Shown here one piece after another: positions 823 to 57,513 of a stretch of 64,000 nt of DNA; position 1 is the first letter of the stretch; each line of letters starts with the position of its first letter. Both the position numbers and the translations under genes were made by a program. This DNA is from Lachnospiraceae bacterium (GTDB taxonomy: Bacteria > Bacillota > Clostridia > Lachnospirales > Lachnospiraceae). Where the stretch lies: contig JAGBEV010000014.1 in the NCBI GenBank assembly GCA_017936785.1, positions 62,001 to 126,000 of the forward strand, written 5' to 3'. The notes below the pieces were generated by a model. The model was not told where the DNA came from and searched no databases. It saw only the letters and a list, made by a program, of their open reading frames with translations.

Positions 823-3800
823 TTAATCCAGTTTCAAAAGATCCTGTTTGATGATGGTGAACATATCAAATGCTGTTCCAAGAGGTCTCTCAATTTCGCT
901 TCCGTTGGTGCCACTGATAGTTTTATACCCTGTATTTGCCTGAATATAAATATTTACAGCGCCCTTATCATTCAGATAAGACATTGGTACATAGAAACCG
1001 TACATAGTACCAACCTCAATTTCTGTATCTGCAATTCCGTTACCGGTATCACAGATCTTCTGACTGAAATCTGAATTGTAAATTGTGATCGGAATTCTTA
1101 CCACATTGACAACAGTATTGTCATTTAACTGAATGGTCATTACCTTTCCTGACTTCGTTACATTGCCATCTTTCCAGGTAACTACATCATCTTTCTTTCC
1201 ATCCACTTCCATATAGAAGTATACCTTTGCATACTTATCGTCACTGGAAACGCCTCTGATCAGGTTTGTATCGGTCACCTTAAAATATGCTTTGGTTCCA
1301 TCTGCTTCCACACCGGTCTGGGTATTGGGATTTACAAACTTATAAAGGTAACCCGTTCCCTTTTCATTAAATTGAATGGAAGAATCAACTGCATTATGTC
1401 CTGTTACATTATTGTCATATGGTACTGCTATACTGTCAAGCATATTACCATTGGAATCGTTGGTCTCATAGTAGGAAACAACCGGATTCACAATACCGGA
1501 CTCATATGCTGCAATCAACGTATTGACAAACAGCTTCGCCTCATTATCCGTTATAGCATTCTGCCTGTTAGATCCAAATGCAGTGAAAGTCACATTACCC
1601 GAATTATAAATATAATAATTATTAATACCATCTCCCGGTGTGACAGAATATATATCTGCACCTGCAAGAACATTATTGTTATTATCAGCCATATCGCTCA
1701 GCGTATACCATACAACCGTATCAGAATTACCGTCTGTATCCGAATCTGTATCCAGATCAAGCTGGAAATACTGTGCATGTGATTTGGATACTGTCACACT
1801 TCCGTTGATCGTATAAGGATAATGTGAAATCTGTCCATCATTCATTTTATCTACATAAGTTCTTGTTGCAGCTCCTGACGGATCACTGGAGGAAGTCAGA
1901 CTGTTAATGGAACCTGCATTGATAAAGCTCTGCTGCAATGCAAGATTCTCATTGACTCTTGTTCTGCTCCATACCGTATTGGTATAAGGATAAACATTGG
2001 CATAAAAACCGGTTCTTGCTGACTGCTGCACATATCCGATTGCCTGGTTGCCATTCTCCCTGCGCACAACATATCCGTTCCATGCATCTGCATCAGACGT
2101 TGTAAACTGAGTTGCTATCTTATTGATATTAACAGGATTTAAATATGCATTATAAACCGGGTTAGTAAGTCCATAACGATCCTGTGCCAGCGAATCAAGC
2201 AGTCCTGCATTTAATGTTCTGGAATTTGTGATCGTTACCTTTCCATCATCTGCCTTGCCATATTCATTAAAGATATTCTGTGCTACAACATTGTTGCTGG
2301 TCAATAATGGTTTTCCGGATGCAATATACTCTCTGATTGCACTGACAGCATTCAGACTGGTAAACTGCGTGTAGTTATCGCCAAAGCCCAAAATTATCAT
2401 ATTAACAGACATCGGTTTATCCTTATCTGCTTCGATCTGCTCCTTGGTATAGTCTGCGTTATCTTCCTTAGTCCGTTCAAAATTACTGAAGAAATACTGC
2501 CACAATTCCTCTTCTACATGAAACTGCTTTTGATTATAATCTGCCGCATCAGGATTACTGGAATATTCAGTTGCATAGGCATGTGCCGCATCTTTCTCAA
2601 ACTGGCTGACTGTAACAGTCCTTACATTTATTTCGTACTGATCCGTTACAACGATATCCTCAAGATACTGTTTTAATATATCCTGATTATTCTCGTCCAT
2701 CAGACTCTCCAGATTGATAGTAGATGCATCTCCATCCGGAGCGATCTGTAAAATATTTATATATTTCTGCTCTCTTGGTTTAATAGCAACATAACCTTTT
2801 TCGCGGCATGAAATCTGTGAATCTGATACCTTCTCCACCTCAATACACCAATTAATGATACCTCCTTCATCTGAAGGAACATTTCTTCTTAAATTATATA
2901 CCACACCATTGCTTAAATTATAGTGTGTGATACCGTTGGCATCTGCCGTACCTCCAACAACAGAATCATCTGCTTCCAGTGTGATCTTATAATCATGCAG
3001 TTCTTCCGTCTCTGAGAATCTGCCGTCTGCATTAATATCCTGATAAAAATGGATTTCATACAGTTCAGTATTGCCAAGTGCTGCCGCTGAGCTGTTGATA
3101 GTAAACTGGTAATCCAGATAGTATTTTCCATCTGTCTTATCTGCTGTCAGATAAGAAATCGAATTATCTCCAAAATTATGGTTGTAAGAAACCGGCTGCT
3201 CCAATATCTGCAAGGTCACTCTCTCTCTGTTGAGATAGTTAATCACATCAGCTTCTCCATAAATGCCTTCGATCAGATCGCCTTCACTGACACAGTTAAA
3301 GAATTTTCCTGCAGCATCCGCAGCGTTACCGGACACTGCACCTGCACGACCGGTTGCATAGCTGAAGAATTCATACATATTAGAAGCATTATCCATCCTT
3401 CCGTGATCGATAACATTCTCTGTACTGGTTGTTGATACAGCGGTCGGATTAATGATCAGATTACCCTTTCCCTGAGATCTGATCAGATCTGAAGCTCCGA
3501 TCACAAGACCGCCGCCCTGTAAGTATTCCTTTAATTCAATCAGTTTGGCTTCTGTCAAATCTCTTGAAGAATAAAACTGGGTCTTATTTCCACTTGTAAC
3601 CACGTCACCATAGCCATAATATACGTTACCACACATATTTGTATTGGAAAAGCTCGTCAGAGAGCCTGTTTTCTGAGAAACAGCACCATTATTTATCTCC
3701 TGCGTCTGTCCATCAGCATGATGATAATACGTATTATTCTTGCTGCCGATATAGATAACATCATAATCGCGCAACAGATCCGTCTGCATTGTATTAAACT

Positions 3801-5691
3801 GATCTACTGTGATACTTGTAAATACCACAAGATCCATCTGCTCATTTGCTGTCATATTGGCATTCAGACACTGACTGATAAATTCCTTTCTTTCAACCTT
3901 TACAGCTTCTGTCTCCAAGGAATAATCTTTCGTTTCAAGAGTTGAATTGAAGCGGAATTCTCTTGTAGGCTCAATTTCAAGTACACTGTAGGAAGCCTTG
4001 GTAAGAGCCAGATCTTCACCTCGATAGCACAGGATATACTGGATTGCCACAGCCGGTGTTATATATCCTTCTGTCATCATTCCAACATCAATGGTACCAT
4101 CCTGTCTCTTTCTTGCATTCAGATCTTCGTTGTTATAGCTGATATAAGCCACAACTGCCTGAAAACCACCGGCAATCGCACCATTATTATACAAACTGTT
4201 TAAATCACCATTTGCAATATTCCCTAAGGCATTTACCTGGAACTGCTCTAGCTTTGAGCTCTGGAAATCCGTATAATGATGATTATAAACATAGACGTTA
4301 TTGACTGCCAGATTTCCGTTATAACCGGTCAGCATGGAAGATTTTAAATAATTGTACCCTTCTGCACCGATATTTAAGGTATTGGCAAACGCCACATCAT
4401 CTCCGATCACATAATGCTTTGCCTTTTTCTCAAGACCAAGCTTCTGTGCATCTGCTGCTGTCACTTCATTAAAATAAGCACTGCAAAAGCCCTGTACTGC
4501 AATCTGCTCCTGATCCTCCTGCCACAGCAAAAGTGCCAGTTTATCCAGATTGGACATTGTATTATCGGAGTCGTTATACAGTTCATAGTCCATGATCACA
4601 GCTTTATGGTAAATAGCTGACTGATTGTACAATTCCTTCAAAATGGCGGTGCTCATGTCCATACCTGCATATTCATCCGCCGTTCCTGATATATAGATCA
4701 GATCATAATCGTTGATATCCGCTGCCGTCAATTGATCAAGGGTCACATTTTTGTATGTAATATTACAGCCAAGGGTCGCATCTCCAAGAATATATTCCTT
4801 GATCCAGTCACCCACCCTATATTTTCTGTTCTGTGACAGAAAACCTACATTGGTCTCGGAAGCATCATATCCATAGTAAATATCCGCAAGATTTTCCTTA
4901 TAAACAAAGCTGACATTTCCGGTTCCATCCGTAACAGTCTCAAGTCCTTCCGGAATTCCATTCCTGGACGGAATCTGTTCATATTTATTGACCAGTGTAT
5001 TTCCACTGACTGTACCATCTATTACCGGGATGTCATTGGCACTGACACTTGTGATCTTGTAGATATAATTCTGATCCAGAGCTGTCAGCTTCTGACCATT
5101 AGGACCATACGCATCGGTTAATGTCTCTGTACCGGTTGCGATGATATAACCATCTTTCAGTTTATAAATTCCACTAGATGTATATTCATAATGACCCTGT
5201 ACCATCTTTCCGGATGAAATTCCGGGATAGGCCCTGAAATCATTTGATCCCGCCTGACCAAACAGACCTTTATTTTCAGAATCATAAATCGGATACTCGG
5301 AAAGTGTGCCAATATGATTATCCGTACCATACGGCTTGATCATACCATAACGTCTCATGGCAAATGCGATCTCTGCTTCCTCTACGCCCCATTCAGTTGA
5401 CCCACTTGCAAAGGAATTAAACCTTTTACCATATGTATAGGTACTGATAGAATCATCATTTCCGGCTCCGCCAACAAAATAACCAAGCTCAGTATTATCT
5501 GCTGAAGCCGTAACTTCCAAGATTTTTAAGCCATTGGTCTTGTAGGATGTACTGATTGGATAAAAAGTATTCTGCTTTGCATATACATCCATTGTTGAAT
5601 TTTTCATATCAACCACAATAACGGATGCAATTATTACCAACGCAATCAATCCGCATATGAATTTTTTGTAGTGCTTTTTCATTATTTTCAT
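823..5691 (-). CDS. Giant membrane-anchored surface protein, last gene of the pilus operon (possible pilus-associated adhesin)
   Basis: 1,622 residues. The N-terminus has a short basic stretch and one hydrophobic segment (about residues 10-28), so it is either secreted or anchored by an uncleaved signal; no LPXTG motif or C-terminal anchor is visible. The ATG at 5691 has GGGGAG in front; a longer reading would need a TTG start with no ribosome site. The body carries at least three related blocks where a buried strand follows an acidic turn (NDYDLIYISG near residue 330, RDYDVIYIGS near 645, VNMIILGFG near 1100). The second and third are followed by a predicted helix and a strand (LKEYLQGGGLVIG; IREYIASGKPLLT). 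This suggests repeated Rossmann/amidotransferase-like folds. From memory it resembles proteins labelled DUF5057, unverified. Its place after four prepilin-like genes suggests a role at the pilus tip or surface; that is inference. Confidence 0.8.
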   Translation of the reverse strand: MKIMKKHYKKFICGLIALVIIASVIVVDMKNSTMDVYAKQNTFYPISTSYKTNGLKILEVTASADNTELGYFVGGAGNDDSISTYTYGKRFNSFASGSTEWGVEEAEIAFAMRRYGMIKPYGTDNHIGTLSEYPIYDSENKGLFGQAGSNDFRAYPGISSGKMVQGHYEYTSSGIYKLKDGYIIATGTETLTDAYGPNGQKLTALDQNYIYKITSVSANDIPVIDGTVSGNTLVNKYEQIPSRNGIPEGLETVTDGTGNVSFVYKENLADIYYGYDASETNVGFLSQNRKYRVGDWIKEYILGDATLGCNITYKNVTLDQLTAADINDYDLIYISGTADEYAGMDMSTAILKELYNQSAIYHKAVIMDYELYNDSDNTMSNLDKLALLLWQEDQEQIAVQGFCSAYFNEVTAADAQKLGLEKKAKHYVIGDDVAFANTLNIGAEGYNYLKSSMLTGYNGNLAVNNVYVYNHHYTDFQSSKLEQFQVNALGNIANGDLNSLYNNGAIAGGFQAVVAYISYNNEDLNARKRQDGTIDVGMMTEGYITPAVAIQYILCYRGEDLALTKASYSVLEIEPTREFRFNSTLETKDYSLETEAVKVERKEFISQCLNANMTANEQMDLVVFTSITVDQFNTMQTDLLRDYDVIYIGSKNNTYYHHADGQTQEINNGAVSQKTGSLTSFSNTNMCGNVYYGYGDVVTSGNKTQFYSSRDLTEAKLIELKEYLQGGGLVIGASDLIRSQGKGNLIINPTAVSTTSTENVIDHGRMDNASNMYEFFSYATGRAGAVSGNAADAAGKFFNCVSEGDLIEGIYGEADVINYLNRERVTLQILEQPVSYNHNFGDNSISYLTADKTDGKYYLDYQFTINSSAAALGNTELYEIHFYQDINADGRFSETEELHDYKITLEADDSVVGGTADANGITHYNLSNGVVYNLRRNVPSDEGGIINWCIEVEKVSDSQISCREKGYVAIKPREQKYINILQIAPDGDASTINLESLMDENNQDILKQYLEDIVVTDQYEINVRTVTVSQFEKDAAHAYATEYSSNPDAADYNQKQFHVEEELWQYFFSNFERTKEDNADYTKEQIEADKDKPMSVNMIILGFGDNYTQFTSLNAVSAIREYIASGKPLLTSNNVVAQNIFNEYGKADDGKVTITNSRTLNAGLLDSLAQDRYGLTNPVYNAYLNPVNINKIATQFTTSDADAWNGYVVRRENGNQAIGYVQQSARTGFYANVYPYTNTVWSRTRVNENLALQQSFINAGSINSLTSSSDPSGAATRTYVDKMNDGQISHYPYTINGSVTVSKSHAQYFQLDLDTDSDTDGNSDTVVWYTLSDMADNNNNVLAGADIYSVTPGDGINNYYIYNSGNVTFTAFGSNRQNAITDNEAKLFVNTLIAAYESGIVNPVVSYYETNDSNGNMLDSIAVPYDNNVTGHNAVDSSIQFNEKGTGYLYKFVNPNTQTGVEADGTKAYFKVTDTNLIRGVSSDDKYAKVYFYMEVDGKKDDVVTWKDGNVTKSGKVMTIQLNDNTVVNVVRIPITIYNSDFSQKICDTGNGIADTEIEVGTMYGFYVPMSYLNDKGAVNIYIQANTGYKTISGTNGSEIERPLGTAFDMFTIIKQDLLKLD

Positions 5692-49556: not shown

Positions 49557-50972
49557 TCACTCTTTCTGCAAAATTTGCAGGATTTCTTCCACAACTATTC
49601 CTACACCCTCGGATTTATGGGATTTTGTCACATAATTTGCAGCATTTTTTGCAGTATCAGAAGCATTTTCTACCGCAATACCGATTCCTGCATAAGCTAA
49701 CATATCTGCATCATTATCTCCGTCACCAAATGCCAGACACTCCTCAGGCTCTATGCCGATTTGTTCCAAAAGCCACTTCAAAGAAGTTCCCTTTGATACT
49801 CCCTCCGGCGTAATTTCTATTAAATGCTCAATGGATGAGGTTATGGATATGCCTTTTATTTCATTTGTTAATTTTTGTTTTAACTTTTCTCTTTCATCTT
49901 TTTGTGCACTGATAAATGAAATACTTTCCAATTCTTTTTTATGTTCCTTAACAAACCCGCCCATATCATCCACTGCATTTCTGGTGGTGCGCACATATTC
50001 CGCTGCTTTTTGGGAGCCAAACCTTTCCGGATGTTCATAATATTCCTTATCACAATAGGCTCTTCCCTGCCAGAACACTTCCATTGTTATAAGAAATCTC
50101 TCTTTTGCCTGTAAATATTCCTTCAAAAGTGCTTCTGCCCCATCCTCCTTCAGGAAGCTGCGGCGGATACATTCCCCGTTCTGACTGACTACAGCCCCAT
50201 TAGATGTAATGGCATATTGCGTTTTGGCTATTTCGGCAATTTCCGCCGGAAGGGTATCATATGCCCTTCCGCTGGCGATGATCAACCCGATTCCATTTTC
50301 CATGGCAGCTTTTATGACCTTTGTGGTATGTTCAGATAATTTTCCCTGTTCATTCAGAATGGTTCTGTCCAAGTCTGTGGCGATGCAGCGGATATTAGTG
50401 GAAATACTTAGTTTACTTTTTAATTTATCAGGTTTTAATAACACCTGATATGTGTGATAAATCTGATCTGCTGTCTGAAACAATTGTCCGCTGTCCTCCG
50501 TCATCACAAGATATTCCACATCATACAAAAAAATGCGCAGATGAGTCAGCGTCATTCCGTTTCTGATATAAAAGGCAATTCTCCGCCTGCGCAGCTCCCG
50601 GTCCCATGGATCAATGCCAAATCTTGGGTTCTCTACCTCCAGGATCAGATTTCCCAGTTCTTTCTTTCTGATTTCTTCTTTCAGCATGGCAAAACACCGG
50701 CTGCCATACCCCTTTCCCCGTATGTCTCCCGAAACTGCAAAATAGTCAAGGAGTACTGCATCTTTTGCTTCAGAAGTCACACAAAAACAATAGCTGACCA
50801 TTTTTTCCGTTCCATTTAAATATTCAAAAATGCCATAGCATAAATATTTTCCCGATTCCCGAAGCATCAGAATCCTTTCTAAGGGCTTGATTTCTCCCTT
50901 TGCAAAGTCCTGCGGCATTTTTTTATGATAGATTTCCGCAATTTCTTCTTTATTTAATAATCGGATCATCAT
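49557..50972 (-). CDS. GNAT acetyltransferase fused to a Cof-type HAD hydrolase
   Basis: 471 residues. Residues 1-155 form a GNAT domain: YFAVSGDIRGKGYGSRCFAM has the acetyl-CoA loop (R/Q-x-x-G-x-G), and RRIAFYIRNGMTL is the C-terminal part. From about 193 a class IIB (Cof) HAD phosphatase follows: CIATDLDRTILNEQG (motif I, nucleophile Asp), ASGRAYDTLP (motif II), and AFGDGDNDADML (motif IV). The two enzyme types are usually separate, so this is a fusion. Substrates are unknown. Two adjacent ATGs at 50972 and 50969 are possible starts. Confidence 0.9.
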   Translation of the reverse strand: MMIRLLNKEEIAEIYHKKMPQDFAKGEIKPLERILMLRESGKYLCYGIFEYLNGTEKMVSYCFCVTSEAKDAVLLDYFAVSGDIRGKGYGSRCFAMLKEEIRKKELGNLILEVENPRFGIDPWDRELRRRRIAFYIRNGMTLTHLRIFLYDVEYLVMTEDSGQLFQTADQIYHTYQVLLKPDKLKSKLSISTNIRCIATDLDRTILNEQGKLSEHTTKVIKAAMENGIGLIIASGRAYDTLPAEIAEIAKTQYAITSNGAVVSQNGECIRRSFLKEDGAEALLKEYLQAKERFLITMEVFWQGRAYCDKEYYEHPERFGSQKAAEYVRTTRNAVDDMGGFVKEHKKELESISFISAQKDEREKLKQKLTNEIKGISITSSIEHLIEITPEGVSKGTSLKWLLEQIGIEPEECLAFGDGDNDADMLAYAGIGIAVENASDTAKNAANYVTKSHKSEGVGIVVEEILQILQKE

Positions 50973-51117: not shown

Positions 51118-51155
51118 AACCCACAAATGGATTTATGAAAAGAGGAGGAACTATC

Positions 51156-51953
51156 ATGAAAAAATGTAACAAACTTGTTGCACTGGGATTGATCGGCGCT
51201 ATGGCATTATCCTTATGTGCATGCGGCAGCAAAGTAGCAGAGAATACTGTTTTCTCTGTAGATGATCTGCCCGGAAAGACAATCGGTGTTCAGTTAGGTA
51301 CAACCGGCGATATCTATGCATCCGATTATGAAGAGGAAGGCTCCACCATCGAGCGTTTCAACAAAGGGAATGATGCGGTTCTTGCTTTAAAGCAGGGCAA
51401 GATCGACTGCGTTATCATTGACAGCCAGCCTGCTCAGGCATTTGTCAGCAAAAATGATGATTTAACCATTCTGGATGAGGAATTTGCTGTGGAAGAATAT
51501 GCGATCTGCATCAGCAAGGACAACAAGGAATTAACAGAAGCATTCAATGATGCTTTAGCAGAATTAAAAGCTGACGGAACACTTGACCAGATCGTTGCAA
51601 ATTACATCGGTGATGATACAAAGGGTACCTGCCCTTATGAAACACCCGAAGGAACCGAATATCCTAACGGAACCTTGACAATGGCAACCAATGCCGCTTT
51701 CGAACCCTATGAATATTATGCAAATAATGAAGTTATAGGTATCGACGCTGACATGGCAAAAGCCATCTGTGACAAGCTGGGATATGAACTGGTGATAGAG
51801 GATATGGAATTTGATTCCATTATCACTGCTGTTCAGTCCGGTAAAGCTGATTTCGGCGCTGCCGGCATGACAGTAACTGAAGACCGTCTGAAGAACATTG
51901 ATTTCACAGATTCCTATACAACCGCAACACAGGTTATCATTGTAAGAAAGTAG
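51156..51953 (+). CDS. Circularly permuted amino-acid ABC transporter binding lipoprotein (SBP family 3)
   Basis: 265 residues. The signal peptide ends in a lipobox (LCAC, C23). The mature part shows family-3 binding protein segments in reversed order. Residues 33-160 match what is normally the second part (VDDLPGKTIGVQLGTTGDIY; IDCVIIDSQPAQAF; ADGTLDQIVANYIGDD), and residues 169-265 match the normal first part (GTLTMATNAAFEPYEYY; GIDADMAKAICDKLGYELV; SGKADFGAAGMTVTEDRLKN, ending TQVIIVRK). Both halves are complete, so this is a permutation, not a truncation or duplication. The ATG at 51156 has GAGGAGG. The permease and ATPase genes follow. The ligand is probably a polar amino acid. Confidence 0.93.
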   Translation: MKKCNKLVALGLIGAMALSLCACGSKVAENTVFSVDDLPGKTIGVQLGTTGDIYASDYEEEGSTIERFNKGNDAVLALKQGKIDCVIIDSQPAQAFVSKNDDLTILDEEFAVEEYAICISKDNKELTEAFNDALAELKADGTLDQIVANYIGDDTKGTCPYETPEGTEYPNGTLTMATNAAFEPYEYYANNEVIGIDADMAKAICDKLGYELVIEDMEFDSIITAVQSGKADFGAAGMTVTEDRLKNIDFTDSYTTATQVIIVRK

Positions 51954-51973: not shown

Positions 51974-52004
51974 AAGGGCTGTAGCTTCCGCTATAGCCCT
52001 TTTT
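51974..52004 (+). terminator. Intercistronic terminator-like hairpin
   Basis: A 12-base-pair stem (AAGGGCTGTAGC with its complement, one G-U) with a 4-base loop and a run of five T lies between the binding-protein stop and the permease start. It probably stops part of transcription, giving more binding protein than membrane components. Confidence 0.8.
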
Positions 52005-52030: not shown

Positions 52031-52717
52031 TTGGATTCATTTATTCAAAAATTTCAACAATGTTTTATTGACGATAACCGGTACATGTATTTGTTAAAAG
52101 GTTTGGGAACAACTCTTTCCATCACTCTTTTTGCTGTGATCCTGGGCGTCTTTCTGGGATTTTTGGTGGCGATCATCCGTTCCACCTATGACAAAACAGG
52201 CAAATTAAAAATTCTGAATTTTATTTGCAATTTTTATCTGACGATTATCCGCGGAACTCCTGTAATGGTGCAGTTATTGATCATGTATTATGTCATATTT
52301 GCAACCTCTTCCAACAAAACGGTGGTTGCAATTTTATCCTTTGGTATTAACTCAGGCGCCTATGTGGCTGAAATCGTCCGTTCAGGTATCATGTCCATTG
52401 ACCAGGGACAGTTTGAAGCCGGCAGAAGCCTTGGTTTCTCCTATCCCAGCACCATGGTATATATTATCATGCCCCAGGCATTTAAAAATGTTCTTCCTGC
52501 TCTGGCAAACGAATTTATCGTATTGTTAAAGGAAACTTCCATTTGCGGTTATATCGGCTTATCTGATTTGACCAGAGGCGGCGATATTATCCGAAGCGTT
52601 ACATATGAAGCTTTCCTTCCCCTGATCGCCGTGGCTTTGATCTATTTATGTATGGTTATGATTTTAACTGCACTTGTAAAGAAACTGGAAAGGAGGCTGA
52701 GAAACAGTGAGCGATAA
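52031..52717 (+). CDS. Amino-acid ABC transporter permease (HisM/GlnP family)
   Basis: 228 residues with about five membrane helices. It contains [19 protein letters not shown], the [10 protein letters not shown] segment and the EAA loop ([22 protein letters not shown]) that contacts the ATPase. This is the polar amino-acid transport permease family. The start is TTG at 52031 with AGGAGG eight bases upstream; no ATG fits. It overlaps the ATPase gene by 11 bases. Confidence 0.95.
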
Positions 52718-53492
52718 AAATACTTTTAATTATGAAACACAGGCACCCATTCAGGATGGAGATATTTTATTTCAGATCGATAATCTCTGTAAATCCTTCG
52801 GCTCCCTTTCTGTACTGAAAAACATTTCCACTGAGATCAGAAAAGGGGAGGTTGTGGTTATTATCGGACCTTCCGGTTCCGGTAAATCCACGTTCCTGCG
52901 TTCTTTAAATCTGTTGGAAGACCCTACGGAAGGAACCATTCTCTTTGAAGGAAAAGATATTACGGATAAACATGCCAATGTCAACAAATACCGCCAGAAT
53001 ATCGGTATGGTATTCCAGCATTTTAATCTGTTTCCTCATATGACTATCCTGCGCAATATGACCCTTGCTCCCGTTAAGCTTTTGAAAATGCCGGAAGCCG
53101 ATGCCCAAAAAATGGCAATGGATTATTTAAAACGTGTGGGATTAGAGGAAAAAGCCAGCGCCTACCCCAACCAGTTATCCGGCGGGCAGAAACAGCGTAT
53201 TGCCATTGTAAGGGCATTGTGTATGCAGCCTGATGTATTATTATTCGATGAACCCACATCCGCTCTTGATCCCGAAATGGTAGGGGAAGTTCTGGAAGTT
53301 ATGAAGGATCTTGCCAAATCAGGCATGACCATGCTGGTAGTAACCCATGAAATGGGATTTGCCAAAGAAGTCGGCTCCAGAGTTTTATTTATGGATGACG
53401 GAAGGATCGTGGAAGAAAATACCCCTCATGAAATCTTTTCCAATCCCCAAAGCGACAGATTGAAGGATTTCTTATCCAAGGTATTGATCTAA
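52707..53492 (+). CDS. Amino-acid ABC transporter ATP-binding protein (GlnQ-like)
   Basis: 261 residues. Walker A (GPSGSGKST), Q-loop ([12 protein letters not shown]), signature ([11 protein letters not shown]), Walker B ([14 protein letters not shown]) and switch His (VTHEMGFA) are all present, and FPHMTILRN and the [12 protein letters not shown] segment are typical for polar amino-acid importers. The start is GTG at 52707, with AAAGGAGG upstream within the end of the permease gene. The N-terminal 20 residues are an extension relative to usual GlnQ. The last gene of the operon. Confidence 0.96.
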
Positions 53493-55445: not shown

Positions 55446-56321
55446 TTACTTACACAGATCCTTGTAACATTCCGGTCTGCGGTCCCGAAACAGCCCCCAT
55501 TCCAGCCTTTCCTCCGCATTTTTATCCAGATCATATGCTGCGATCAGAATCTCTTCCCGGTCTTTGGACGCACTCTTTATGATTTCTCCCGTAATATCTG
55601 TCATAAAGGAAAAGCCATAAAAGTTTAAAGCGGATGACTGACCTCCGTTTTCTTTGCAGGGTTCCACTTTTTCCTCACCGATACGATTTGCCGCAATGAC
55701 CGGAACCGTATTGGCCGCTGCATGTCCCTGCATGGTCCTCCTCCAATGAAGGCTGCTGTCGCTTCCCAGAATAGGTTCACTGCCTATGGCTGTAGGATAT
55801 AAAATCAATTCTGCGCCTTTTACAGCAAGGGCACGGGCAGTTTCAGGAAACCACTGGTCCCAGCAGATACCAATGCCGATTCTGCCATATTGGGTATCCC
55901 ATACCGGAAATCCTGTATTCCCCGGAGAAAAATAGAATTTTTCCTGATAATAATGGTCATCAGGAATATGTGTCTTGCGGTAAATGCCCAAAAATGAACC
56001 ATCTCCATCGATCACTGCAATGGAATTATATAGCCTGTTTTCATCCTTTTCGTAAAAGCTGACGGGTATTACTACTGACAATTCCTCTGCCACTTTCATA
56101 AAATGCCGTACAGCGGCATTTTCCATGACAGGTGTGGCAAAGCTGTAATAATCATATCTGCGTTCCTGACAAAAATAGGGACGTTCAAATAATTCCGGCA
56201 GCAATATGATATCAGCTCCCTGTGCAGCCGCCTCTCTCACCATCTTATCAGCTTTTTTTATATTATCCTCTACTTGTCCGCTCATTCTCATCTGAATGGC
56301 AGCTACTGATACATTTCTCAT
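55446..56321 (-). CDS. aguB: N-carbamoylputrescine amidase
   Basis: 291 residues, a nitrilase-superfamily enzyme turning N-carbamoylputrescine into putrescine, ammonia and carbon dioxide. The catalytic triad is Glu43 (LLPELFE), Lys116 (YRKTHIPD) and Cys153 (GICWDQWFPE). FERPYFCQ, DDHYYQEKFYF and SLHWRRTMQGHAAANTVPV match AguB specifically. It is the last gene of the polyamine operon, 55 bases after aguA. The ATG at 56321 has AAAGGAAA upstream. Confidence 0.96.
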   Translation of the reverse strand: MRNVSVAAIQMRMSGQVEDNIKKADKMVREAAAQGADIILLPELFERPYFCQERRYDYYSFATPVMENAAVRHFMKVAEELSVVIPVSFYEKDENRLYNSIAVIDGDGSFLGIYRKTHIPDDHYYQEKFYFSPGNTGFPVWDTQYGRIGIGICWDQWFPETARALAVKGAELILYPTAIGSEPILGSDSSLHWRRTMQGHAAANTVPVIAANRIGEEKVEPCKENGGQSSALNFYGFSFMTDITGEIIKSASKDREEILIAAYDLDKNAEERLEWGLFRDRRPECYKDLCK

Positions 56322-56376
56322 ATGCCTGTTTTCCTTTCCTGCATACTATCTGTAATCTTCTATATCCAATATATAA

Positions 56377-57513
56377 TTACAAAGGGATCTGCTGGGTAAT
56401 ACAATGGATATTTCCTCCGCCCACAATGACACTTCTTGCCATAACAGGTACTATTTTTCTATCAGGGAAGGCATGTTCCATCAACTGTACTGCCAGACCA
56501 TCATTTTCGTCACCGAACTGGGGAAGTATAATACTATGGTTGGAAATATAGAAGTTTACATAACTAGCCGCCAATCTTTCTCCTGCCTGACGTATATCTT
56601 CGCCCTCTTCAAAAACAAAGCCCTCACATTCTTCCTTTGTAATACAGACCGGCTTCCTGGGAATGGGCAGCTTTATGACCTCCAATGTTCTTCCTTTTGC
56701 ATCTTTCTCATTACATAACACCCCATATGCTTCTTTTGAATAAGCATACTGGGGATCGTTTTCATCATCTGTCCATGCAAGGACAACTGTTCCCGGCTTC
56801 ACAAAGGCACATACATTGTCCACATGTTCATTGGTTTCATCCCCATAGATTCCATGCGGCAGCCAAATAACTTTTTCACCGCCAAGATAATTGCATAACG
56901 CTTGTTCTATTTCTTCTTTGGTCATAGAGGGATTTCTTCCCGGGCTTAACAGACATGCCTCTGTTGTTATAATAGTTCCTTCTCCGTCCGTATGAACAGA
57001 ACCGCCTTCTAATACAAACGGTGTCGCATCCACACATGGATAATCCAACTGCCTGCAAAGCTCTTTTGCCACCAGGTCATCCTTTTCCCAATGGGCATAA
57101 AGTCCGTCATAGGTTCCGCCCCATGCGTTGAAGGTCCAGCTGATCCCTTGTACTTCTCCTTCCCGGTTCCGTACAAAGGTAGGCCCCACATCTCTTGCCC
57201 ATGCGTCATCGGATGCAATTTCCAAAACCTGCATATTTTCGTAGTTACCACATTTAGATAACATCTGTTTTGCTTCTTTTACATGCTCTTTATCAGCCAG
57301 CATAAACAGCTTTTCATCTGCCCCGATGGCATTGGCGATTTCACAAAAGGTTTTTTTGGCATCCCTGCCTTCATATATCCATGATCCGGGTCTTACGGGC
57401 CAGATCATGATGCAGCCAAAATGTTGTTCAAATTCTCCGGGCATGATAAAAGCATCTTTTAAATTATATTGATTTATTTTATTATTTAGCATTTCTGTCT
57501 TTGACATTTTCAT
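56377..57513 (-). CDS. aguA: Agmatine deiminase
   Basis: 378 residues, the usual length. It turns agmatine into N-carbamoylputrescine and ammonia. The start of the domain (MPGEFEQHFGCIMIWPVRPG), SDDAWARDVGPTFV, WTFNAWGGTYDGLYAHWEKD, LEGGSVHTDGEG, HGIYGDETNEHVDN and the catalytic Cys371 in GGGNIHCITQQ are all characteristic of the agmatine deiminase branch of the guanidino-modifying family. It lies 66 bases after nspC. The ribosome site at 57513 is weak. Confidence 0.97.
   Translation of the reverse strand: MKMSKTEMLNNKINQYNLKDAFIMPGEFEQHFGCIMIWPVRPGSWIYEGRDAKKTFCEIANAIGADEKLFMLADKEHVKEAKQMLSKCGNYENMQVLEIASDDAWARDVGPTFVRNREGEVQGISWTFNAWGGTYDGLYAHWEKDDLVAKELCRQLDYPCVDATPFVLEGGSVHTDGEGTIITTEACLLSPGRNPSMTKEEIEQALCNYLGGEKVIWLPHGIYGDETNEHVDNVCAFVKPGTVVLAWTDDENDPQYAYSKEAYGVLCNEKDAKGRTLEVIKLPIPRKPVCITKEECEGFVFEEGEDIRQAGERLAASYVNFYISNHSIILPQFGDENDGLAVQLMEHAFPDRKIVPVMARSVIVGGGNIHCITQQIPL

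What the first reader, a model, noticed from the sequence alone, without database searches (positions are those of the whole stretch)
51156..51953. Circularly permuted family-3 solute-binding protein
The mature binding protein has its two halves in the reverse of the normal order. The segment that is usually the second half (VDDLPGKTIGVQLGTT...) comes first, and the segment that normally starts the mature protein (GTLTMATNAAFEPYEYY...) comes last, ending in the hinge strand VIIVRK. All the usual motifs are there once, so the fold can be complete with new termini at the hinge. From memory similar proteins exist in other Lachnospiraceae, so it may be a clade-wide state rather than unique. New termini at the hinge may change closing dynamics and the distance to the lipid anchor.
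Basis: partly seen in the sequence, partly recalled or inferred. Interest (0 to 1): 0.75.

Follow-up and report, generated by a model that had tools for sequence, protein, structure and literature searches.

The report
Circularly permuted amino-acid binding protein
A bacterial lipoprotein that should catch amino acids for an import pump has the two ends of its chain moved to the hinge between its lobes; the same swap is widespread in gut Clostridia, and related proteins have been re-cut in a second place, in one case within a single genus.

Summary
The 265-residue lipoprotein at 51156-51953 holds every part of a family-3 solute-binding protein once, in the order lobe 2 + C-terminal helix, new linker, first part of lobe 1. 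Rotated at the linker it matches a profile of 39 canonical relatives over 216 of 217 positions (318.6 bits; native order 160.5). It keeps the ligand residues, is followed by permease and ATPase genes, and is under purifying selection.

It is not unique: 131 distinct ORFs of the hinge-permuted clade were read, 38 fused to the permease, in Lachnospiraceae, Oscillospiraceae and others. Beyond the finding, permutation recurs: at least one more hinge form is separate (AU p 0.012), and a second kind, cut inside lobe 2, is not one clade (AU p 1.8e-5). In one genus three of ten genomes read are lobe-2-permuted and seven canonical; two of the three share flanking genes with four of the canonical loci. 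Tandem copies exist among relatives, so I infer duplication and out-of-phase trimming.

No structure could be predicted; folding is inferred. A permuted type I binding protein (TpMglB-2) is known; seven searches of the held library showed no family-3 report.

The parts
51156..51953 (+). Hinge-permuted family-3 solute-binding lipoprotein, 265 aa
   Evidence: the ORF is also open from an ATG at 51135, but GAGGAGG before 51156 favours the latter
51156..51224 (+). Signal peptide and lipobox LCAC; lipid-bearing Cys23 (inferred from sequence)
   Evidence: C23 nearly invariant
51225..51251 (+). Short tether between anchor Cys and the new N-terminal lobe
   Evidence: tether statistics
51252..51611 (+). 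Lobe 2 followed by hinge strand 2 and C-terminal helices (residues 33-152), normally the second half
   Evidence: matches 4zv1 107-232
51612..51665 (+). New linker joining the former C- and N-termini (Y161 invariant, P164 nearly invariant)
51666..51950 (+). First part of lobe 1 (residues 171-265), normally the start, ending in hinge strand VIIVRK
   Evidence: PF00497 1-92; 4zv1 8-104
51974..52001 (+). Hairpin with a U run between binding protein and permease, possible partial terminator
   Evidence: -20.2 kcal/mol, z -3.96; not listed by the consensus scan
52031..52717 (+). Permease of the polar amino acid ABC importer (TTG start)
   Evidence: (PF00528)
52707..53492 (+). ATPase of the importer, GlnQ-like (GTG start)
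   Evidence: PF00005; NF007027 320.4 bits, below its cut-off of 379

Best explanation
It is the substrate-binding lipoprotein of a polar amino acid ABC importer (binding protein, one permease, one ATPase), and a natural circular permutant of the family-3 fold. The former termini are joined by a linker of about 18 residues and the chain is opened at the first lobe-to-lobe crossing. The two lobes then share one covalent crossing instead of two; the last residues (VIIVRK) should still complete the hinge as a free strand; the lipid anchor pulls at the hinge rather than at lobe 1. Shown: segment order, completeness, conserved ligand residues, conserved operon, selection, clade-wide spread. Inferred: same bilobed fold, amino acid binding, and origin by tandem duplication/fusion of a canonical gene with trimming of both ends out of phase. 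The C-terminus at the hinge is also a usable port: in 38 of the 131 ORFs of the clade read here it runs straight into the permease.
For: Swapped blocks and rotation test. In alignments of 25 and of 42 permutants T49, T50, D89, F182 and R244 are invariant or nearly so; in the 82-row set they are also the commonest residues in canonical rows (38 to 40 of 40) and type-2 rows (16 of 16). dN/dS 0.026-0.052 in 5 of 6 comparisons (dS not estimable in the sixth; L009 and L064 are one sequence; dS is 1.5-2.0, near saturation, so the ratio is rough). C-terminus 2-4 residues after the hinge strand in 90 of 93 unfused clade members. Of 80 clade ORFs with room downstream, 76 are followed by or fused to permease and followed by ATPase, 3 have the permease only, 1 neither. 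Tandem relatives exist: canonical x3 + permease in one 973-aa ORF (L038) and permuted x2 + permease (L117, L139); the solved tandem 6h30 matches the permuted profile in one stretch across its internal junction. In one genus L229/L234 show such a conversion at a syntenic locus, with a canonical-like signal peptide and a linker ending in the canonical pre-domain sequence FTT(V/I)E.GKL.
Against: No structure could be predicted or compared. The window's own linker shows no relic of a canonical N-terminal tether (best of 56 canonical tethers: 94 of 1000 shuffles reach its score), so duplication is argued by analogy with type 2c. In the trees canonical L174 falls beside the small permuted subclade (unresolved), and in the permease+ATPase tree canonical operons lie inside the permuted ones, so reversion or replacement of the binding protein is possible. 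A domain-swapped dimer is not excluded.
Confidence: 0.88

Rival explanations
1. The chain folds as a domain-swapped dimer: lobe 2 of one molecule completes lobe 1 of another, so the fold is complete only in oligomers.
For: The linker is only about 18 residues. As recalled, TmArgBP, one of the closest solved relatives, is a domain-swapped dimer.
Against: Linker length with 7 flanking residues is held within 20-28 over 131 ORFs, and 38 of 131 are fused to a permease. Neither excludes a dimer.
Confidence: 0.12
2. It is a truncated tandem or decaying gene fragment: two half copies left by deletion that no longer work.
For: Tandem relatives exist.
Against: Each element once, profile covered 1-216 of 217; dN/dS 0.026-0.052, rough; 131 distinct ORFs of the clade with the same ends.
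Confidence: 0.02
3. The permuted order of the window's clade came from several events, reversions or replacements, not from one event in its ancestor.
For: Canonical L174 beside the small permuted subclade (L043, L051, L053, L063, L127) and canonical operons inside permuted ones in the permease+ATPase tree.
Against: Holding main and small subclades together is not rejected (p 0.5, 0.196). A loose linker pattern Y-x-[STAPKN] occurs in 131 of 131 and a stricter Y-x-[STA]-[PAEND] in 107 of 131.
Confidence: 0.2

Closest known systems
Canonical family-3 (cluster F, type II; class names recalled) amino acid binding proteins: AncQR 4zv1, TmArgBP 6svf, GlnH 1ggg, HisJ 1hpb
   Same: Homologous over both lobes; ligand residues as in canonical relatives; permease and ATPase partners
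   Different: Segment order; termini at the hinge rather than on lobe 1; extra linker
TpMglB-2 (Tp0684), glucose-binding lipoprotein, proposed 'Type Ic' (PMC4990184; passages, part 1 of section 6)
   Same: Natural circular permutant of a binding lipoprotein; the paper reports the topology also in Gram-positive, often gut, bacteria; it binds glucose
   Different: Type I sugar-binding fold, not family 3; the permutation adds a fourth lobe crossing there, here it should remove one of two
GlnP/GlnPQ-type binding domain-permease fusions (tandem pair in 6h30)
   Same: Same family; tandem or permease-fused binding domains also occur in the permuted clade
   Different: Those domains are canonical in order (recalled, and consistent); the window's protein is a separate gene

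Membership tests
SBP family 3 (PF00497) | Score above Pfam's gathering cut-off | tested here: met
   128.1 bits vs 26.4
SBP family 3 (PF00497) | Both lobes and C-terminal helices complete | tested here: met
   Positions 1-216 of 217 of the canonical profile after rotation
SBP family 3 (PF00497) | Amino acid ligand residues (Thr-Thr, Asp, Phe, Arg) in place; their roles recalled | tested here: met
SBP family 3 (PF00497) | Permease and ATPase partners | tested here: met
   52031-53492
Canonical family-3 topology (sub-class) | Lobe 1 first, termini on lobe 1 | tested here: not met
   hence a member of the family but not of the canonical topology
SBP family 3 (PF00497) | Bilobed fold and ligand binding in fact | not testable with these tools
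   structure prediction switched off
TpMglB-2 'Type Ic' proteins | Type I sugar-binding fold | tested here: not met
   Only PF00497, Lig_chan-Glu_bd and Phosphonate-bd listed at E up to 0.01
GlnP-type fused binding protein | Binding domain and permease in one chain | tested here: not met
   Stop at 51951-51953; separate permease gene
Tandem or truncated tandem | More than one copy of a half | tested here: not met

The most novel reading that the evidence does not exclude
Family-3 binding proteins of Clostridia are a natural laboratory of circular permutation: their genes pass through tandem states and are re-cut, repeatedly and independently, at two places (hinge strand 1, and a loop inside lobe 2), with at least four changes of order in the set read here. 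The hinge form persists because it moves both chain ends and the lipid anchor to the hinge, which also makes the C-terminus a port for fusion to the permease.
Probability: 0.6. Interest if true: 0.78.

Novelty: new variant of a known kind. Interest (0 to 1): 0.66.

Why it matters
Natural circular permutation is usually seen long after the event. Here one family gives several separate events, tandem forms that could be intermediates, and one genus in which seven genomes read have the canonical gene and three a permuted one, partly at a syntenic locus. That makes 'does permutation go by duplication, fusion and trimming, and what does it change in function' directly testable with natural before-and-after pairs. 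It also warns that family-3 proteins in gut Clostridia are split into two reversed domain hits by family searches, and it offers natural binding scaffolds with both ends at the hinge, useful for sensors.

Tried and rejected
Rfam at gathering threshold on 8001 bases round the operon: nothing; on 16 relatives: one hit, TwoAYGGAY RNA downstream of the L110 operon. Consensus scan: 9 promoter-like sites against 8.7 expected, 1 terminator-like against 1.8, uninformative. Single origin of all near hinge permutants plus L173: rejected (AU p 0.0116; group chosen after seeing trees; the same test on the 96-row tree did not finish). Single origin of type-2 (lobe-2) permutants: not rejected for type 2a plus L055 (p 0.399), rejected for 2b, 2c and L055 together (p 1.8e-5), not rejected for 2b plus L055 (p 0.238). 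The test with the far group (L158, L160, L161) did not finish and was not repeated. Relic of a canonical tether in the window's linker: none found. A first count of fusion changes treated tandem fusions as a separate label; the recount is. Four ORFs were dropped as incomplete (first ORF of L046, permuted ORF of L090, L178, L180). Twelve loci of distant paralogues were set aside in the tether and rotation-profile counts. Papers: seven searches listed no report of a permuted family-3 protein; most subscription papers and bioRxiv preprints are not held. Only PMC4990184 was opened (passages and one part of a section); the others were seen as search listings.

Full report
What is there. The ORF at 51156-51953 encodes 265 residues with a lipoprotein signal peptide (lipobox LCAC, Cys23), then lobe 2 with the C-terminal helices (about residues 33-152), a linker of about 18 residues, and the first part of lobe 1 (171-265) ending in VIIVRK. 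Pfam finds SBP_bac_3 at 128.1 bits in two stretches, with the profile start at residue 174. NCBIfam models split likewise: TIGR01096 positions 124-250 lie at residues 33-151, GlnH positions 26-117 at residues 173-264. Solved relatives align in two swapped blocks, AncQR 4zv1 8-104 to residues 170-265 and 107-232 to residues 30-152.

A direct test. I built a profile from 39 canonical relatives and scored every rotation of the mature window protein (241 rotations). Rotations cut in the linker gave one match over positions 1-216 of 217 at 318.6 bits; native order gave a best match of 160.5 bits, the median was 238.0 and the minimum 153.7. So the protein is a complete family-3 protein that has been rotated, with the new break at the first lobe crossing.

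Function. The permease (52031-52717) and ATPase (52707-53492) follow. Between binding protein and permease lies a stable hairpin with a U run (51974-52001, -20.2 kcal/mol, z -3.96), as is common where the binding protein is made in excess (recalled); the consensus scan did not list it. Residues T49, T50, D89, F182 and R244, which by recall of amino acid binding proteins contact the ligand, are invariant in the 42-row alignment and dominate the same columns in canonical and type-2 relatives (in the permuted rows of that set, which include distant ones, 25, 24, 26, 22 and 26 of 26). dN/dS against orthologues is 0.026-0.052 in 5 of 6 comparisons; L009 and L064 give identical values and are evidently one sequence, and dS of 1.5-2.0 makes the ratio rough. 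The substrate cannot be named; no RNA family was found near the operon.

How far it spreads. In 200 genomes drawn from the window's family, 41 hold a hinge permutant of this clade that I confirmed by reading the ORF (matches; architectures); weaker matches were not all fetched, so this is a lower bound. In 391 genomes of the class, 12 were confirmed among the 30 best loci (architectures). In all, 131 distinct ORFs of the clade were read; 38 are fused to the permease. Of the 93 unfused, 90 end 2-4 residues after the hinge strand. Linkers with 7 flanking residues are 20-28 long. Of 80 ORFs with enough sequence downstream, 76 have permease (fused or next) and ATPase, 3 lack the ATPase (L040, L066, L068) and 1 both (L056). 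The sampling was by similarity to the permuted protein, so these are not population estimates. In the window's own genus, five genomes (G000, G201, G203, G205, G206) gave a strong full-length match and four (G200, G202, G204, G086) only weak ones.

Other architectures. L038 (973 aa) is canonical three times plus permease. L117 and L139 are permuted twice plus permease. L158, L160 and L161 are distant hinge-permuted forms fused to permease, the last two also to the ATPase; in L160 Pfam's best match lies across the middle, where the order is canonical, so that chain could pair its halves in two ways. L173, L211 and L217 are single hinge permutants with other linkers.

A second kind of permutation. 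Relatives L055, L057, L154-L157, L159 and L163-L167, and L194-L201 and L203-L205, read: last part of lobe 2, lobe 1, first part of lobe 2. Their ends lie between the helix ending AKAFVAxN and the strand LKIL of lobe 2, while the joined former ends are the same as in the hinge form. By linker there are three sorts: 2a (GDGEPEAVESAELD type), 2b (HDLxFQ type, with L055) and 2c (L194, L199, L201).

A before-and-after pair. In the genus of 2c, the ten genomes with a match were read: three have the lobe-2 permuted order, seven the canonical order, each with permease and ATPase following. L229 (permuted) and L234 (canonical) are 93% identical in the lobe-1 part and 86% and 78% in the two lobe-2 parts. 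Flanking genes of permuted L229 and L230 match those of canonical L232-L235, at up to 89% for L229/L234; L231 and L236-L238 show no such shared flank, apart from short matches that lie antisense to the binding gene. So for part of the set this is one locus in two states. The signal peptides are alike, and the linker of the permuted form ends FTTIEEGKL, FTTVEEGKL or FTTVKEGKL where the canonical mature protein of L234 has FTTVESGKL before lobe 1; this resemblance is reached by 168, 47 and 38 of 5000 shuffles for the three linkers, suggestive rather than proof. It is what fusion of two tandem copies followed by trimming would leave. The other canonical proteins of the genus show only parts of that motif.

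How many events. On the 96-row tree the three orders need 6 changes; on the 82-row tree 8, with well-supported branches forcing at least 4 for the lobe-2 type and 2 for the hinge type. AU tests: the main and small hinge subclades may be one clade (p 0.5; 0.196); adding L173 is rejected (p 0.0116). Types 2b, 2c and L055 as one clade are rejected (p 1.8e-5); 2b plus L055 is not (p 0.238); 2a plus L055 is not (p 0.399). With two hinge groups and two lobe-2 groups as the least, I count at least four changes of order, gains or reversions. The groups were chosen after looking, so p values are optimistic. Against a tidy story, canonical L174 sits beside the small hinge subclade, and canonical operons lie within permuted ones in the permease+ATPase tree.

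What it may change. In the canonical fold two chain crossings join the lobes (recalled); here one is cut and should survive as a paired free strand. The tether from lipobox Cys to the first lobe has median 11 residues in 84 single hinge permutants with a recognised lipobox (of 96, which include L173, L211 and L217) against 22 in 39 canonical proteins (of 39), Mann-Whitney p 2.7e-8 without correction for kinship. Fusion to the permease needs 7 changes on the 96-row tree, of which well-supported branches force 3 (all fused forms, canonical and distant ones too). These fit the idea that the hinge end is a convenient attachment point, but cause is not shown.

What is known. TpMglB-2 of Treponema pallidum is a crystallised circular permutant of a type I binding protein, called Type Ic by its authors, who note relatives in Gram-positive gut bacteria and suggest a link with membrane anchoring (PMC4990184; passages, part 1 of section 6). 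The present case is in another fold class and is cut at a different place. Seven searches listed no report for family 3. Of the 60 solved chains shown (of 88 matched) only the tandem 6h30 matches the permuted profile in one long stretch, across its two domains.

Noticed in passing
L229, L230, L231 (permuted) and L232-L238 (canonical): Within one genus the binding protein of the operon is lobe-2-permuted in three genomes read and canonical in seven; L229 and L230 share flanking genes with canonical L232-L235.
   Followed up: yes
L055, L057, L154-L157, L159, L163-L167, L194-L201, L203-L205: A second permutation type with ends inside lobe 2 (order: end of lobe 2, lobe 1, start of lobe 2), not a single clade.
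   Followed up: partly
L038:3913-6831 (- strand): 973-aa ORF with three very similar canonical binding domains fused to the permease.
   Followed up: partly
L160:3088-6534 and L161:2653-5382: Single ORFs joining permuted-order binding domain(s), permease and ATPase in one chain.
   Followed up: partly
window 55446-57513, - strand: Carbon-nitrogen hydrolase next to a PF04371 protein of agmatine-deiminase type, perhaps an agmatine to putrescine route, near the importer.
   Followed up: no
window 49557-50972, - strand: 471-aa ORF: Pfam HAD hydrolase at 197-458; the first about 190 residues look like an acetyltransferase by eye but match no Pfam family at 1e-5.
   Followed up: no
L110:6474-6639: TwoAYGGAY RNA (RF01731, 107.4 bits) just downstream of the ATPase gene.
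   Followed up: no
L039 (two adjacent genes at 2924-3721 and 3869-4684): Two hinge-permuted binding protein genes side by side before one permease and ATPase.
   Followed up: no
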